A DNA stretch of 5,586 bases from Desulfocapsa sp. (GTDB taxonomy: Bacteria > Desulfobacterota > Desulfobulbia > Desulfobulbales > Desulfocapsaceae), in contig DAOVZA010000165.1 of NCBI GenBank assembly GCA_030635405.1, positions 1 to 5,586 on the forward strand, in the 5' to 3' direction. The notes under the pieces were generated by a model. That model was given only the letters and a program-made list of their open reading frames with translations. It made no database searches and was not told where the DNA came from. Below, in pieces: positions 585-5,586 of the stretch; positions within the stretch are counted from its first letter, which is position 1, and each line of letters opens with the position of its first letter. Made by a program: the position numbers and the translations under genes.

Positions 585-2375
585 ATGGTTCTTGGCGGAG
601 GAGAAAATAAATGTTTTAATGGGAGTATATTACGTGCTAATCAGGAGTCATTTTTCTTATCGAGAACTTACCTGCCTATGAAATTGTTTTTACTTCAGAT
701 TCTTTTTTTTGTAAGAAACGAAAAAGCTAAAAAAAGCGTTTACCTCCTCACTCGTTTTCTTTTTTTCCTGGCTTTTATCATCTGCTTGTACAGCGTTGTC
801 TTTCACCTCATCATGGCATACGAGGGCAGAGACTTCAGCTGGATAACAGGTTTTTATTGGACTCTCACCGTTATGTCCACCCTCGGTTTTGGAGATATCA
901 CCTTCTCCACAGATCTTGGACTAGTCTTTACCCTTCTGGTATTAATATCAGGGGTAATCCTGCTTCTGATCATGCTGCCATTCACTTTTATTCAATTTTT
1001 CTGGGCCCCCTGGCTTGAAGCCCAGAACGAAAGTAAAATCCCCAGAACCCTTCCGAAAGAAACAAAAGATCACGTAATTATTACCTCCTACGATGCCCTC
1101 ACCAGGAATCTCGTGGTAAAACTCAGAAAACATCTTTACGATTATCACTTTGTAAGCAGTGACCAGCAACTAGCCCATGAAATTCAGGATGCCGGATATC
1201 ATGTTATCTTTGGTGAAGTTGACGATCCTGAAACGTACAGAAATATATATGCTAATCAGGCCGCCCTCATAGTAGCCACTGCTGACGACCTCATGAATAC
1301 GAACATCTCTTTTACGGTACGAGAGATCAGCAGTAGCGTTCCCATTGCCAGTAGTGCCGATACGGAACACTCCCTTGACATACTAAATTTTTCTGGAAAC
1401 ACTCATGTTTTTCAGTTTATGAATATGCTTGGAATTAACATGGCTGAAAAAACAATACCTGTTACCAATACTCATACTATCGGCCGTTTTGAAGAGTTAC
1501 GTATTGGCGAGATCCCTGTTCGTGATACTGGACTCATCGGCAAAACTCTTGCCGAATCCCGGCTCAGGAATGATCTTGGAATAACAATTATCGGCATCCT
1601 GGAAAAGGGACAAATACTTCCACCAGAGCCACAAAGTAAACTTCTGGCTACAAATATTTTAATTATGGCAGGGAGCGAGGAAGAGCTTGAACATGCCGGA
1701 CAGTTTCTGGTGCAACCTCCTTCTTTACCGCTACCTGAGCCAACCGTGCTTATTCTTGGCGGAGGCAGAGTAGGACATGCCGCAGCTGTATATCTTAAGG
1801 AGAACAACGTCCCTTATATGATTGTCGAAAAACGTCAGAATGTCAGTATGAGACACGAACATCATATCCATGGCGATGCAGCTGACATCAAAACATTACG
1901 GGAAGCTGGAATAGACAAGGCGGCATCTGTAATCATTACAACCCATAACGATGCCATGAATATCTACCTTTCTTTCTACTGCCGTCAACTTCGCCCAGAC
2001 ATTCAAATAATCAGTCGAGCCAGAGAAGAGCGAACTATCTCGAAATTATTTAGAGCAGGAGCAGACCTTGTAGATTCGTCAGCATCAATGGGTGCCACAG
2101 CCATTATGGATATCCTTCAGCCATCAGATACTTCGTTCTTTTCAGACGCTCTGAATGTCTTTTTAGTACCAACGCCAGACGCCTTTATTGGTAAAACATT
2201 GACAGAGCTACAAATGCGTGAGAAAACCACCTGCAGTCTTCTTGCTATAAAAAACGAAGGCGAATTTAGAACAAATCCCGATCCAAACACGGTCTTTGAT
2301 GACAGCCACGAATTAATTTTAGCAGGATCTGTAGAAGCTGAAGAACAATTCCGACAAGAATATCTGAAACAATAA
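585..2375 (+). CDS. GsuK-like K+ channel with two tandem RCK (TrkA-N/TrkA-C) modules
   Basis: Inner-membrane K+ channel subunit, expected to be a tetramer gated by cytoplasmic ligands. Residues are numbered from ATG 585. TM1 is about 55-77, the pore helix and filter about 88-105 with TLGFGD at 99-104, and TM2 about 112-137. RCK1-N is about 161-290 with its C domain at about 298-378. RCK2-N is about 387-515 with its C domain at about 523-590. RCK2 has a classic dinucleotide site, GGGRVG at 392-397, with E415 ending the second strand. RCK1 lacks this glycine motif, reading SYDALT at about 168-173. Family knowledge: Geobacter GsuK has the same pore-RCK-RCK order and responds to nucleotides and Ca2+. 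The start is uncertain. Residues 1-31 do not look like part of the family, and M32 (ATG 678) gives the usual short cytoplasmic N-terminus, so I prefer 678. Neither ATG has a good ribosome site. The PilZ gene follows after 3 bases. Confidence 0.93.
   Translation: MVLGGGENKCFNGSILRANQESFFLSRTYLPMKLFLLQILFFVRNEKAKKSVYLLTRFLFFLAFIICLYSVVFHLIMAYEGRDFSWITGFYWTLTVMSTLGFGDITFSTDLGLVFTLLVLISGVILLLIMLPFTFIQFFWAPWLEAQNESKIPRTLPKETKDHVIITSYDALTRNLVVKLRKHLYDYHFVSSDQQLAHEIQDAGYHVIFGEVDDPETYRNIYANQAALIVATADDLMNTNISFTVREISSSVPIASSADTEHSLDILNFSGNTHVFQFMNMLGINMAEKTIPVTNTHTIGRFEELRIGEIPVRDTGLIGKTLAESRLRNDLGITIIGILEKGQILPPEPQSKLLATNILIMAGSEEELEHAGQFLVQPPSLPLPEPTVLILGGGRVGHAAAVYLKENNVPYMIVEKRQNVSMRHEHHIHGDAADIKTLREAGIDKAASVIITTHNDAMNIYLSFYCRQLRPDIQIISRAREERTISKLFRAGADLVDSSASMGATAIMDILQPSDTSFFSDALNVFLVPTPDAFIGKTLTELQMREKTTCSLLAIKNEGEFRTNPDPNTVFDDSHELILAGSVEAEEQFRQEYLKQ
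597..681 (+). promoter_or_regulatory. Possible leader-peptide cascade ahead of the channel start
   Basis: The best Shine-Dalgarno sequence near the channel start is GGAGGAG at 597-603. It does not serve an in-frame channel codon. Seven bases downstream lies ATG 611, which opens a two-codon ORF (ATG TTT TAA). Its TAA overlaps a second ATG at 619 (TAATG). That ATG opens a 20-residue ORF, MGVYYVLIRSHFSYRELTCL, ending at TGA 679-681, and this stop overlaps the channel ATG at 678 (ATGA). Both overlaps are of the kind that allow translational coupling. This is directly visible, but a regulatory role is inference; the pattern could be chance, particularly if the channel really starts at 585. Confidence 0.35.
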
Positions 2376-2378
2376 TTC

Positions 2379-3323
2379 ATGACATCCGACGAAGACAAAA
2401 GAGCATTACAAATTCATAATCTTAAAAAGAAGCTTTCTTTTTATTTTCCAGAGGATGCCCATACTTTTACGCAAAATGCCGTTGAAGAAGGGTTGGATTC
2501 CGGTAGCATTATGACCACTCCAGCCGACATTCTCCCCTATGTCCAAACAGCATTAATTGACAATAAAATCCTTGAAGTAGAGCTCAACGGGGCTGACAAG
2601 ATTTATTTCAGCAGAATGAATGACGAGCCCCCAGACCCTGAAATAATGGAAAACGATCAGGGAGAGTTCGAAATGATGCAGCCCGACTATCCTCCTGGAG
2701 AATATCTAAAGTCATTAAATCATATCATATGCCTGCCGCTTGAACCTGGGATGGGAAATCATCATATTAGAAGTTCAGAGCAGGTGATGATTCGTTTTTT
2801 TACATCTTCAAGTGCCATTGAGCTTGGAACTTCTTTTCAAAAGCTCACAGAAATCCAGGGACTTCCTGTGCTGCAGCTCTCCTTTCCTGCAATTGCAAGA
2901 CAGATCGAAGGTGCCAGGGCATTTCGCGCAAAGGTTCCTGGTAATATGGCTTTTACTCTTATCATTAAAGGAAAGAAAAAATTAGGTCGTCCCAATATCG
3001 ACACGGTCCCCATTGATATCAGTGCCGCAGGGATGTCGTTTGAGATTCAAAGGGAGGAACAAAAGCTATTCCAGGAAGAAGAGATATGTAATATTCGTTT
3101 CTTCCTCGATACTGAGATGCATTTGAAGGTCAATGCGAAAGTTCGCCACATCTCCAAAATCAGGAACAGGTCAAGTATCCAATACTGCTGCGGTGTAGAA
3201 TTTGACATCGAGAGCCGGTCAATGGCTTCCTCCGTAGAGGGCATTGTGGCAAGCGTACAACGCGCTCATCTCAAGGAACTTGCGGAGCTTTCAGAAGCAA
3301 GCGGTATCTCAATGGTTCGTTGA
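2379..3323 (+). CDS. PilZ-domain protein, YcgR-like architecture
   Basis: A 314-residue cytoplasmic protein with no signal peptide or membrane segment. Residues 1-105 are an acidic region I do not recognise. About 110-175 resembles the YcgR N-terminal beta domain, ending PVLQLSFP just before the linker, and about 176-295 is a PilZ domain. The second c-di-GMP motif, DxSxxG, is intact as DISAAG (D213, S215, G218), and the domain closes with CGVEF (271-275). The first motif, RxxxR, is degenerate: in EGARAFRAKVP only R183 (and R180, off by one) is present, with A179 where the first arginine normally lies. Family knowledge: YcgR-like proteins bind c-di-GMP and alter flagellar or surface behaviour. 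Binding here is therefore plausible but weakened. The gene begins 3 bases after the channel stop with no strong ribosome site of its own, which suggests translational coupling. No flagellar gene is in view, so a motility role is inference. Confidence 0.85.
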   Translation: MTSDEDKRALQIHNLKKKLSFYFPEDAHTFTQNAVEEGLDSGSIMTTPADILPYVQTALIDNKILEVELNGADKIYFSRMNDEPPDPEIMENDQGEFEMMQPDYPPGEYLKSLNHIICLPLEPGMGNHHIRSSEQVMIRFFTSSSAIELGTSFQKLTEIQGLPVLQLSFPAIARQIEGARAFRAKVPGNMAFTLIIKGKKKLGRPNIDTVPIDISAAGMSFEIQREEQKLFQEEEICNIRFFLDTEMHLKVNAKVRHISKIRNRSSIQYCCGVEFDIESRSMASSVEGIVASVQRAHLKELAELSEASGISMVR

Positions 3324-3995: not shown

Positions 3996-4529
3996 TTATC
4001 CTTTTTTACCGTATTGCTCAAAGCTTACCCGCTCTTTTAAAAGTGAAGAATCGGGGTGTCCATTACTTTCTTTGGCAGAGTAGCCAATGGCGATGATTGC
4101 TTCGACCACTAGGCCATCCTTCAACCCCAAAATATCTTTAACATATGACTCAGCACCCATCTGTTCATCATGCTCACGAAGACGTATCTGCACCCAGCAA
4201 CTCCCAAGATCAAGATCTGTGGCTTCCAAATGCAGCAACATGGCCGCAATGGAACAGTCTTCAACCCATACATCACATTTTTCTGGATCAGCGCAAACTG
4301 CAATGGCTAACGGCGCATTTTTCATAAATGCAGAACCGTGCTGTTTCGCCTGCGCCAGTTTTTCGATGGTTGCTTTTTCCTGCACCACCACAAATTCCCA
4401 GGGATACAGGCTTCGAGAAGATGGTGCTCGTAACATGGCTTCAATTAACAAATCGATTTTTTCCTGCTCAACGGGTCTGTCCTGAAACTGACGTATGGAT
4501 CTTCGTTTTCGTAATATATCAATAAACAT
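3996..4529 (-). CDS. Nitroreductase-family FMN oxidoreductase
   Basis: A compact 177-residue member of the nitroreductase fold, expected to be a cytoplasmic FMN-binding homodimer using NAD(P)H. FMN-phosphate residues are visible at the N-terminus in RKRRSIRQF (R9, R10, S11, R13). APSSRSLYPWEFVV (35-48) is the usual APSS...PW.F block. VEDCSIAAM (89-97) followed by DLDLGSCWVQI (105-115) is the conserved helix and loop, and AIGYSAKE (147-154) is the C-terminal IGY block. These place it in the family but do not give a substrate; nitro compounds, quinones or flavins are all possible. The start is ATG (4529-4527) with a weak GAGTGAG ribosome site that overlaps the stop of the upstream peptidase gene, 7 bases away. 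pdxH follows 8 bases downstream. Both enzymes use FMN, but no shared pathway is evident. Family call firm, function open. Confidence 0.92.
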   Translation of the reverse strand: MFIDILRKRRSIRQFQDRPVEQEKIDLLIEAMLRAPSSRSLYPWEFVVVQEKATIEKLAQAKQHGSAFMKNAPLAIAVCADPEKCDVWVEDCSIAAMLLHLEATDLDLGSCWVQIRLREHDEQMGAESYVKDILGLKDGLVVEAIIAIGYSAKESNGHPDSSLLKERVSFEQYGKKG

Positions 4530-4536
4530 AGTCTAC

Positions 4537-5235
4537 TCACTCAAAGTCTTTTAAGAGGCTGTCAATGCTGCGCCACTCGGGTAGTAATCTATCCATATGG
4601 GCGTAGAATTTCTTATTATGGTCTCGTTCCAGTAGGTGCACCAGTTCGTGAACAATAATAAGCTCCATGCACGCCTCAGGTTTCTTTGCTAGTTCCAAAT
4701 TCAGCCAGAGACGATGTGCAATAATATTACACGTCCCCCATCTGGTTTTCATCTTCTTTATGCGAAATTCTTTTACTTTGCGGCCAACTCTTGGCTGCCA
4801 GAGTTTAAGCAATGCTGGAATCCGACTCCTTAGTTCATCACGATACCAGTTATCGAGCACGCGCAATCTGCCCTCTGCCGTGGTACCGGAACGAACATTA
4901 AGGGTAATCCCCGTCTCTTCATCGAAGTGAACAAAATGTTTAAAACTCCCTTCAATTACGGTTAGTGGGTATTTTCTACCAAAAAGGGATTGTGTTTCAC
5001 CTGTGACTATCTGAGGGAGTGTGACCATTGGACGTGCCTGAAAAAACTCACGTTGCTCCTGAATCCAAGCCATACGGTTTAGAACAGCACGACGAATGCG
5101 TTTTTCAGATGTGAAACGAGGAACGGAAATCCGTACACGGCCATCGGGGGCATAGACTGCCAGATTGAGGTTTTTAACGGGTTTTCTCCATACCTCAACG
5201 GAGATATCACCAATTGTCAGATGTTCTTTTTTCAA
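4537..5235 (-). CDS. YgjP-type (DUF45/M48-like) zinc metallopeptidase
   Basis: A 232-residue protein of the YgjP/DUF45 family, zinc metallopeptidase-like and with no firmly established substrate. Near the C-terminus it carries HELVH (196-200) with a third likely zinc ligand H206 in HLLERDHNKKF. Upstream is the family block KMKTRWGTCN (161-170), followed by RLWLNLELAKKP (175-186). The N-terminal half, from VEVWRKPVKNLNLAVY (13-28) to FGRKYPLTVIEG (85-96), also fits the family, and the length is normal. No signal peptide or membrane span is seen, so it is probably cytoplasmic. The start is TTG (5235-5233), directly after the hgcB TAA and in the same reading frame; no ATG or GTG gives a full-length family N-terminus. 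An AAGGA lies 12 bases upstream inside hgcB, slightly far. Translation is therefore probably coupled to hgcB. In other genomes such genes often occur near restriction-modification loci; none is visible here. Confidence 0.92.
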   Translation of the reverse strand: MKKEHLTIGDISVEVWRKPVKNLNLAVYAPDGRVRISVPRFTSEKRIRRAVLNRMAWIQEQREFFQARPMVTLPQIVTGETQSLFGRKYPLTVIEGSFKHFVHFDEETGITLNVRSGTTAEGRLRVLDNWYRDELRSRIPALLKLWQPRVGRKVKEFRIKKMKTRWGTCNIIAHRLWLNLELAKKPEACMELIIVHELVHLLERDHNKKFYAHMDRLLPEWRSIDSLLKDFE

Positions 5236-5505
5236 TTAGCAACAAGGTCCTTCAATACCAAGTAATTCATTAATTATTCCACGTACACAGCCCTCACCCG
5301 ACTCCACAGTAATTGCGCCAGACGGACAGTTTTTCATACATGCGCCACATTCCATACAAAGATTACGGGCAATCATAACTGCTTTTTTATCTTCCATAAC
5401 AAACACCGCGTGGGGGCAGACCATTGTACACATAGTGCAGCCGATGCATTTGTCCTTGTCATATTCCAGAGTGACCACATCTTCAAGATAACGTAATTCT
5501 GCCAT
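5236..5505 (-). CDS. hgcB: HgcB, two-[4Fe-4S] ferredoxin of mercury methylation
   Basis: An 89-residue ferredoxin, the likely electron donor to the corrinoid protein HgcA during methylation of Hg(II). Two cluster motifs are visible: C20, C23, C26, C30 (CIGCTMCTMVCP) and C50, C53, C56, C60 (CMECGACMKNCP). Three further cysteines separate it from ordinary ferredoxins: C73 in EGCVRG, and a vicinal pair C88-C89 as the last two residues (EGPCC). Family knowledge: HgcB of the mercury-methylating strain ND132 has a conserved Cys73 and a C-terminal Cys-Cys pair implicated in mercury handling. The N-terminus MAELRYLEDVVTLEYDKDKCIGC also has the HgcB pattern (..RYL..V.TL..D..KCIGC). The ATG (5505-5503) is served by a strong G-rich ribosome site. 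Upstream, 12 bases away, is an ORF end that fits HgcA. A generic ferredoxin is the alternative, but the terminal CC plus C73 and the neighbour make HgcB clearly better. Confidence 0.9.
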   Translation of the reverse strand: MAELRYLEDVVTLEYDKDKCIGCTMCTMVCPHAVFVMEDKKAVMIARNLCMECGACMKNCPSGAITVESGEGCVRGIINELLGIEGPCC

Positions 5506-5511
5506 TCCAAT

Positions 5512-5520
5512 CCCCCCTTA
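5512..5520 (-). promoter_or_regulatory. Shine-Dalgarno site of hgcB
   Basis: On the minus strand the sequence TAAGGGGGG precedes the hgcB ATG, with 6 bases (ATTGGA) between the G-run and the start codon. Its first three bases are the stop codon of the upstream ORF (hgcA), so ribosomes ending hgcA would sit on the hgcB start site. It fixes the hgcB start at 5505 and supports tight coupling of the pair. Confidence 0.75.
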
Positions 5521-5586
5521 AGCTCGCCACAGTGATGTGGCCCAAAGGCCAAGCCCTGTGACAAGACTTACAAATTGAATGGGCAT
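5518..5586 (-). CDS. hgcA: C-terminal end of HgcA (corrinoid methyltransferase), partial
   Basis: The minus-strand frame reads through the right edge and ends at TAA (5520-5518), giving 22 residues: MPIQFVSLVTGLGL, then WATSLWRA. The segment is hydrophobic with a short polar/basic end, as expected for the last membrane helix of HgcA, whose C-terminal domain is membrane-embedded. The first visible ATG is only where the window is cut, not a start. HgcA carries the methyl group on a corrinoid and transfers it to Hg(II), and it is almost always encoded directly upstream of hgcB, here with a 12-base gap. The diagnostic cap-helix cysteine motif lies outside the window, so the call depends on position and on the character of this short tail. 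Any other integral membrane protein is the alternative. Confidence 0.7.
   Translation of the reverse strand: MPIQFVSLVTGLGLWATSLWRA

What the first reader, a model, noticed from the sequence alone, without database searches (positions are those of the whole stretch)
5236..5586. hgcAB mercury-methylation locus at the right edge
The 89-residue ferredoxin has two CX2CX2CX3C motifs, an extra C73 and a terminal Cys-Cys pair, a combination that marks HgcB. Twelve bases upstream, a reading frame ends in a hydrophobic tail fitting the last helix of HgcA. hgcAB is found in a limited, scattered set of anaerobes and is the established genetic basis of methylmercury formation. The host is therefore predicted to be a methylator.
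Basis: partly seen in the sequence, partly recalled or inferred. Interest (0 to 1): 0.85.

Follow-up and report, generated by a model that had tools for sequence, protein, structure and literature searches.

The report
Mercury-methylation gene pair, altered motif
This stretch ends in the gene pair that lets bacteria turn mercury into methylmercury, in a probable relative of the sulphur bacterium Desulfocapsa, and its key protein carries a one-letter change in a signature motif that some published surveys used as a filter, so bacteria like it can be overlooked.

Summary
The 89-residue ferredoxin passes NCBI's curated HgcB model (111.4 bits, cut-off 99) and has every Cys named. The frame 12 bases upstream is the end of hgcA. 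A full HgcA, P0131 (368 aa), ends in the window's exact 22-residue tail, and its longest contig (18,905 bases) is as long as the longest one holding the window's HgcB. It passes the HgcA model (418.7, cut-off 275), with a corrinoid domain and five C-terminal helices.

Two additions. (1) Its cap-helix motif reads NVWCAAGE, not NVWCAAGK: 13 of 158 listed HgcA proteins have Glu, 145 Lys; the tree needs two changes. Motif filters quoted from five papers reject all 13.

So this is a real hgcAB pair, of a lineage where it has also been lost. Mercury methylation is inferred, not shown; the Glu form is untested. Host: probably Desulfocapsaceae.

The parts
5236..5505 (-). hgcB, dicluster ferredoxin HgcB, 89 aa
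   Evidence: NCBIfam NF040864 111.4 bits, cut-off 99; all Cys present
5518..5586 (-). 3' end of hgcA (last 22 codons and stop); the rest lies beyond the window and is read from P0131
4537..5235 (-). YgjP-like metallopeptidase gene directly after hgcB; possibly co-transcribed, not needed for the finding
   Evidence: PF01863, E 5.4e-55; conserved neighbour
3996..4529 (-). nitroreductase family gene, neighbour
   Evidence: PF00881
3349..3987 (-). pdxH, pyridoxamine 5'-phosphate oxidase, neighbour used to place the host
   Evidence: TIGR00558 274 bits, cut-off 180; 86% to G025

Best explanation
The right edge of the window is a genuine hgcAB pair of a Desulfobulbales bacterium close to Desulfocapsa. 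HgcA holds a corrinoid through its cap-helix cysteine (C119 of P0131), takes up a methyl group and passes it to mercury; HgcB's two [4Fe-4S] clusters re-reduce the corrinoid, and its C73 and C88/C89 handle the metal. The cap-helix lysine that is otherwise nearly constant is glutamate (E123) in this clade. Shown here: gene order, family membership, corrinoid domain, five helices, cysteines, the Lys/Glu difference and its two changes on the tree. From papers: the chemistry and the role of the cysteines. Inferred: that the Glu form still methylates mercury.
For: HgcB model passed. P0131: exact 22-residue tail and contig length, HgcA model 418.7 vs 275, CFeSP corrinoid domain match E 3.6e-14 with an HgcA profile, helices 203-234, 240-272, 278-297, 306-330, 339-367 in a model of pLDDT 86, Foldseek's first hit the published HgcAB model 9a0b. 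hgcA directly before hgcB in the 9 relatives printed. dN well below dS: 0.25 vs 1.73 for the two Glu-type hgcA genes held as DNA, 0.11 vs 1.15 for hgcB of window vs L001, dS near saturation.
Against: The body of hgcA is outside the window and is taken from another contig. The cap-helix Lys is replaced by Glu, and no test of a Glu-type HgcA is known to me. A hydropathy scan alone showed four hydrophobic windows, two of them overlapping, not five. The closest syntenic genome found has lost the pair, so it is dispensable in the lineage. Genotype does not always predict activity: 8 of 9 hgcAB methanogens methylated above controls (abstract of PMC5893877, listing).
Confidence: 0.8

Rival explanations
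1. It is HgcAB by descent, but the Glu form no longer (or only poorly) methylates mercury and is kept for another corrinoid methyl transfer, perhaps the unknown original task of the family.
For: Charge reversal at a position that is Lys in 145 of 158 listed HgcA proteins; the residue before it (Gly96 of ND132) contacts HgcB Arg58 in the published model (PMC7305189); loss of the pair in a syntenic relative.
Against: All Cys reported as needed for methylation in ND132 are present; dN well below dS; the change happened twice and 13 listed proteins keep it.
Confidence: 0.17
2. The ferredoxin is an ordinary 2[4Fe-4S] protein and the upstream tail an unrelated membrane protein.
For: Short ferredoxins are easily confused: 85 NCBIfam models match at E 0.001 or better.
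Against: HgcB cut-off passed with 54 bits to the next model; the tail is letter for letter the end of an HgcA on a contig as long as the one that holds the same HgcB.
Confidence: 0.02
3. It is another HgcA kind: the 'CU' selenoprotein HgcA common in the same taxonomic family, or an HgcAB-like fusion.
For: 54 of 93 genomes of the family of G001 have an HgcA relative of a second kind.
Against: P0131 is 40-52% identical to that kind but 53-72% to the six window-type proteins of the family; it scores 193.8 against the fusion model's cut-off of 285; hgcB ends with TAA after Cys-Cys and has Cys at 73.
Confidence: 0.01

Closest known systems
HgcAB of Desulfovibrio desulfuricans (Pseudodesulfovibrio mercurii) ND132
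   Same: Gene order, corrinoid domain plus five membrane helices, cap-helix Cys, two [4Fe-4S] motifs, C73 and a C-terminal Cys pair in HgcB (PMC7305189 passages; PMC11588087 abstract)
   Different: Cap helix ends in Glu instead of Lys; HgcB is 89 residues with Cys at 88/89 (94/95 in ND132) and Lys58 instead of Arg58
Glu-type HgcAB of L001 (Desulfocapsa sp. MAG) and L002 (Desulfobulbaceae MAG)
   Same: NVWCAAGE; HgcA 72% and 68%, HgcB 81% and 82% identical
   Different: None of the window's other genes lies within the fetched loci of either
Lys-type HgcAB of Desulfobulbales, such as Desulfomarina profundi (P0159/P0056)
   Same: Same order, HgcB tail GI.GPCC, HgcA 66% identical
   Different: NVWCAAGK and Gly at HgcB residue 24
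'CU' selenoprotein HgcA (listed in the table of PMC13188914, passage)
   Same: HgcA family with NVWCAAGK and an HgcB-like gene nearby in most fetched loci
   Different: 40-52% identical to P0131; conserved Cys-TGA before the frame in 18 of 24 loci
Corrinoid iron-sulphur protein (CFeSP) large subunit, 2h9a
   Same: Corrinoid domain, 25-27% identity in the structural alignment
   Different: No cap-helix Cys (Thr in the alignment), Ala where HgcA has Lys/Glu, no membrane part

Membership tests
HgcB | Score above the curated NCBIfam NF040864 cut-off | tested here: met
   111.4 vs 99 bits
HgcB | Two CxxCxxCxxxCP motifs, Cys73, Cys at the C-terminus | tested here: met
HgcB | Lies directly after hgcA | tested here: met
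   12 bases after the hgcA stop
HgcB | Groups with HgcB in a tree of ferredoxins | not tested
   Profile score and neighbour used instead; the only tree is of HgcA
HgcA | Score above the curated NCBIfam NF040863 cut-off | tested here: met
   P0131 418.7 vs 275
HgcA | Corrinoid domain with cap-helix Cys | tested here: met
   C119 in NVWCAAGE; CFeSP match
HgcA | Literal motif N(V/I)WCA(A/G)GK used as a filter in papers | tested here: not met
   Glu in place of Lys. It is a recognition rule, not the functional residue; the Cys is kept, so membership by profile stands
HgcA | Five C-terminal membrane helices | tested here: met
   Five helices in the AlphaFold2 model; hydropathy alone showed four windows, two overlapping
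HgcAB | Methylates mercury in vivo, lost on deletion | not testable with these tools
   Needs an experiment
HgcAB-like fusion protein | Score above the NF043039 cut-off (285), one fused protein | tested here: not met
   193.8 for HgcA and 57.1 for HgcB; separate genes
'CU' selenoprotein HgcA | Cys-Sec (TGA) in the reading frame | tested here: inconclusive
   The DNA of the window's hgcA is not held; the Glu-type relatives L081 and L082 show no Cys-TGA just before the frame

The most novel reading that the evidence does not exclude
A clade of Desulfobulbales methylators carries active HgcAB with a charge-reversed cap helix (Lys to Glu, arisen twice, perhaps matched by a change at HgcB residue 24), and published surveys that demand a motif ending in GK have dropped it from their counts of methylmercury producers.
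Probability: 0.5. Interest if true: 0.6.

Novelty: new member of a known kind. Interest (0 to 1): 0.42.

Why it matters
hgcAB is the marker by which methylmercury producers are counted. Here an HgcA that is clear by curated profile and by its Cys fails the motif filters quoted from five papers, so counts made that way would miss this clade. The Glu form is a natural test of what the conserved cap-helix lysine does, and the relic in a relative with the same gene order is a concrete case of hgcAB loss.

Tried and rejected
Rejected: an ordinary ferredoxin; an HgcAB-like fusion; that hgcB belongs to a conserved operon with ygjP, nitroreductase and pdxH (those three stand together in 8 of 9 fetched regions, none with an intact hgcB found; in the ninth the contig ends).

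Weak: a link between HgcA residue 123 and HgcB residue 24. Proteins were paired by equal longest-contig length or by locus. Dropped before the count: P0194/P0024, whose sources differ, L002 (the same proteins as P0154/P0027) and the repeated loci L081 and L082. Left: 6 Glu pairs (5 Thr, 1 Ala) and 27 Lys rows (25 Gly, 2 Arg), three of which (L085, L086, L088) repeat listed proteins. Against it: among all 102 Lys rows, distant ones included, 24 are not Gly; L117, outside the count, is Lys with Ser. At most two independent pairs exist, one on starred branches, so no significance can be reached.

Led nowhere: viral contigs (no relative); structure of HgcB (pLDDT 58, discarded); a genome for the window; naming G025 (contig 3,982,500 bases; the Desulfocapsa sulfexigens chromosome is 3,986,761, PMC3739170; not equal, so left unnamed). 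The consensus protocol for finding hgc genes is not held; its rule was seen only as cited in PMC10469668.

Full report
Observation. The minus strand carries an 89-codon gene at 5236-5505 with two CxxCxxCxxxC motifs, C73 and a terminal Cys pair, and 12 bases upstream the end of another gene. The ferredoxin passes NCBIfam's HgcB model at 111.4 bits (cut-off 99); the next model reaches 57.1. A search found 555 relatives, of which the best 120 were listed; of 22 that I aligned, the window's included, 20 share the G(I/L)xGxCC end.

The missing HgcA. The window ends 22 codons before the hgcA stop. A search with the HgcA of the close relative L001 (Desulfocapsa sp. MAG) listed P0131 (368 aa). Its last 22 residues equal the window's tail, the only one of the 120 listed HgcA proteins for which my pattern found this, and its longest contig (18,905 bases) is as long as the longest contig that holds the window's own HgcB. 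It is therefore the window's HgcA or that of the same population; beyond the window the two could differ. P0131 passes the HgcA model (418.7 against 275). A profile of 76 HgcA proteins matches CFeSP corrinoid domains (E 3.6e-14). The AlphaFold2 model (mean pLDDT 86, residues 1-9 and 332-337 poor) has five long C-terminal helices; Foldseek's first hit is the published HgcAB model 9a0b (TM 0.48 by query), then CFeSP chains. A hydropathy scan alone gave four windows, two overlapping.

The cap helix. P0131 reads NVWCAAGE. Of 158 HgcA proteins listed by two searches, 13 have Glu and 145 Lys at this place; each search listed its best 120 of more than 7,600, so this is no estimate for nature. Of the 112 loci then held, 4 (two genomes, each held twice) showed Glu, 99 Lys, 5 more Lys on a second look, and 4 no motif; ten later loci were all Lys. 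Among the genomes of two families with a window-type HgcA (identity 53% or more), Glu is in 1 of 6 (family of G001) and 1 of 10 (family of G002). On a tree of 94 HgcA rows built without that column two changes are needed, and starred branches force two: a clade of 11 rows with the window's protein, and the pair P0127/P0154 (quick tree, SH-aLRT support only, long branches present). It is the one column found in which both Glu groups differ from all 63 near Lys rows. For the two Glu-type hgcA genes held as DNA dN is 0.25 and dS 1.73, near saturation, which speaks against decay.

Filters. Passages of five papers quote the motif used to accept HgcA: G(I/V)NVWCAAGK (PMC7438021), NVWCA(A/G/S)GK (PMC7536318; PMC10469668), N(V/I)WCA(A/G)GK (PMC10349881) and N(V/I)WC(A/S)(A/G)GK (PMC12953829). 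All 13 Glu-type proteins fail all four patterns; 139 to 144 of the 158 pass. Not every survey is affected: PMC7347909 asked for the conserved Cys93 motif of the cap helix and quotes no Lys in the passages seen; the forward primer quoted in PMC7573106 ends within the Gly codon, before the changed residue; and NCBI already names the Glu-type P0127 as HgcA. Whether those five studies actually met and dropped such sequences was not tested. A text search for NVWCAAGE found 0 papers (open-licence papers, no figures or supplements), and none of the papers held 'hgcA', 'Desulfocapsa' and 'methyl' together.

Possible partner change. HgcB residue 24 is Thr or Ala in 6 of 6 Glu pairs and Gly in 25 of 27 near Lys rows, but with two independent pairs at most this is a lead, not a result; the details against it are under Tried and rejected. 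In the published model HgcA Gly96, next to this residue, contacts HgcB Arg58 (PMC7305189); the window has Lys58.

Host and neighbourhood. No genome is held for the window. G025 has the six neighbours (response regulator, TrkA-type channel, PilZ protein, PdxH, nitroreductase, YgjP) in the same order at 65-86% identity. Upstream of its ygjP lies a decayed hgcB: 55 or 56 codons of the 3' part at 75-76%, the first third missing, one in-frame TAA; its only HgcA match is weak (E 1.4e-10, in a 457-residue frame, so no hgcA). The readable part nearly equals P0003, the HgcB of the Glu-type P0143. Of 93 genomes of the family, 59 have an HgcB match at E 1e-18 or better, and G025's is the one with a TAA inside; one other (G068) has a TGA. 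YgjP, nitroreductase and PdxH stand together in 8 of 9 fetched regions. Inference: hgcAB lay beside this block in the common ancestor of the window's host and G025 and was lost in G025. Loss of hgcAB as such has been proposed before (PMC7862947, passage).

Two kinds of HgcA in one family. Six of the 93 genomes have a window-type HgcA; 54 have a second kind at 40-52% identity (my count from the table, which is cut at its weak end). Of 24 fetched loci of that kind, 18 have Cys-TGA-Gly-Pro before the frame, 2 do not, and 4 were missed by the script's pattern; this fits the 'CU' selenoprotein HgcA in the table of PMC13188914 (passage).

Mechanism. From papers: SAM is the methyl donor in recent work with purified HgcAB (PMC11588087, abstract and passages); HgcA's Cys ligates the corrinoid, HgcB has two [4Fe-4S] clusters, and in ND132 C73 and at least one terminal Cys of HgcB are needed for full activity (PMC7305189, passages). 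These residues are all present here. That the Glu form is active is my inference, at about 0.8.

Noticed in passing
L127 10455-10622 (-), genome G025: Decayed hgcB without hgcA at the syntenic place: first third missing, one in-frame stop.
   Followed up: yes
L089-L112 (family of G001): Second HgcA kind with a conserved Cys-TGA before the frame in 18 of 24 loci, a probable selenoprotein.
   Followed up: partly
L095, hgcB after the HgcA frame; probably the match at G068:C95: HgcB with TGA at the place of C73 (GVG*AAL); a 'GVGU' HgcB is listed in PMC13188914.
   Followed up: no
P0092 (85 aa, Desulfobulbaceae MAG): HgcB whose N-terminus is unrelated and lacks most of the first cluster motif; possible frameshift or decay.
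   Followed up: no
window 5233-5238 (-): The hgcB stop TAA is followed directly and in frame by the TTG start of ygjP.
   Followed up: no
window 585-3323 (+): Potassium channel with two TrkA_N and two TrkA_C stretches, followed by a PilZ-domain protein; both conserved beside pdxH in several relatives.
   Followed up: partly
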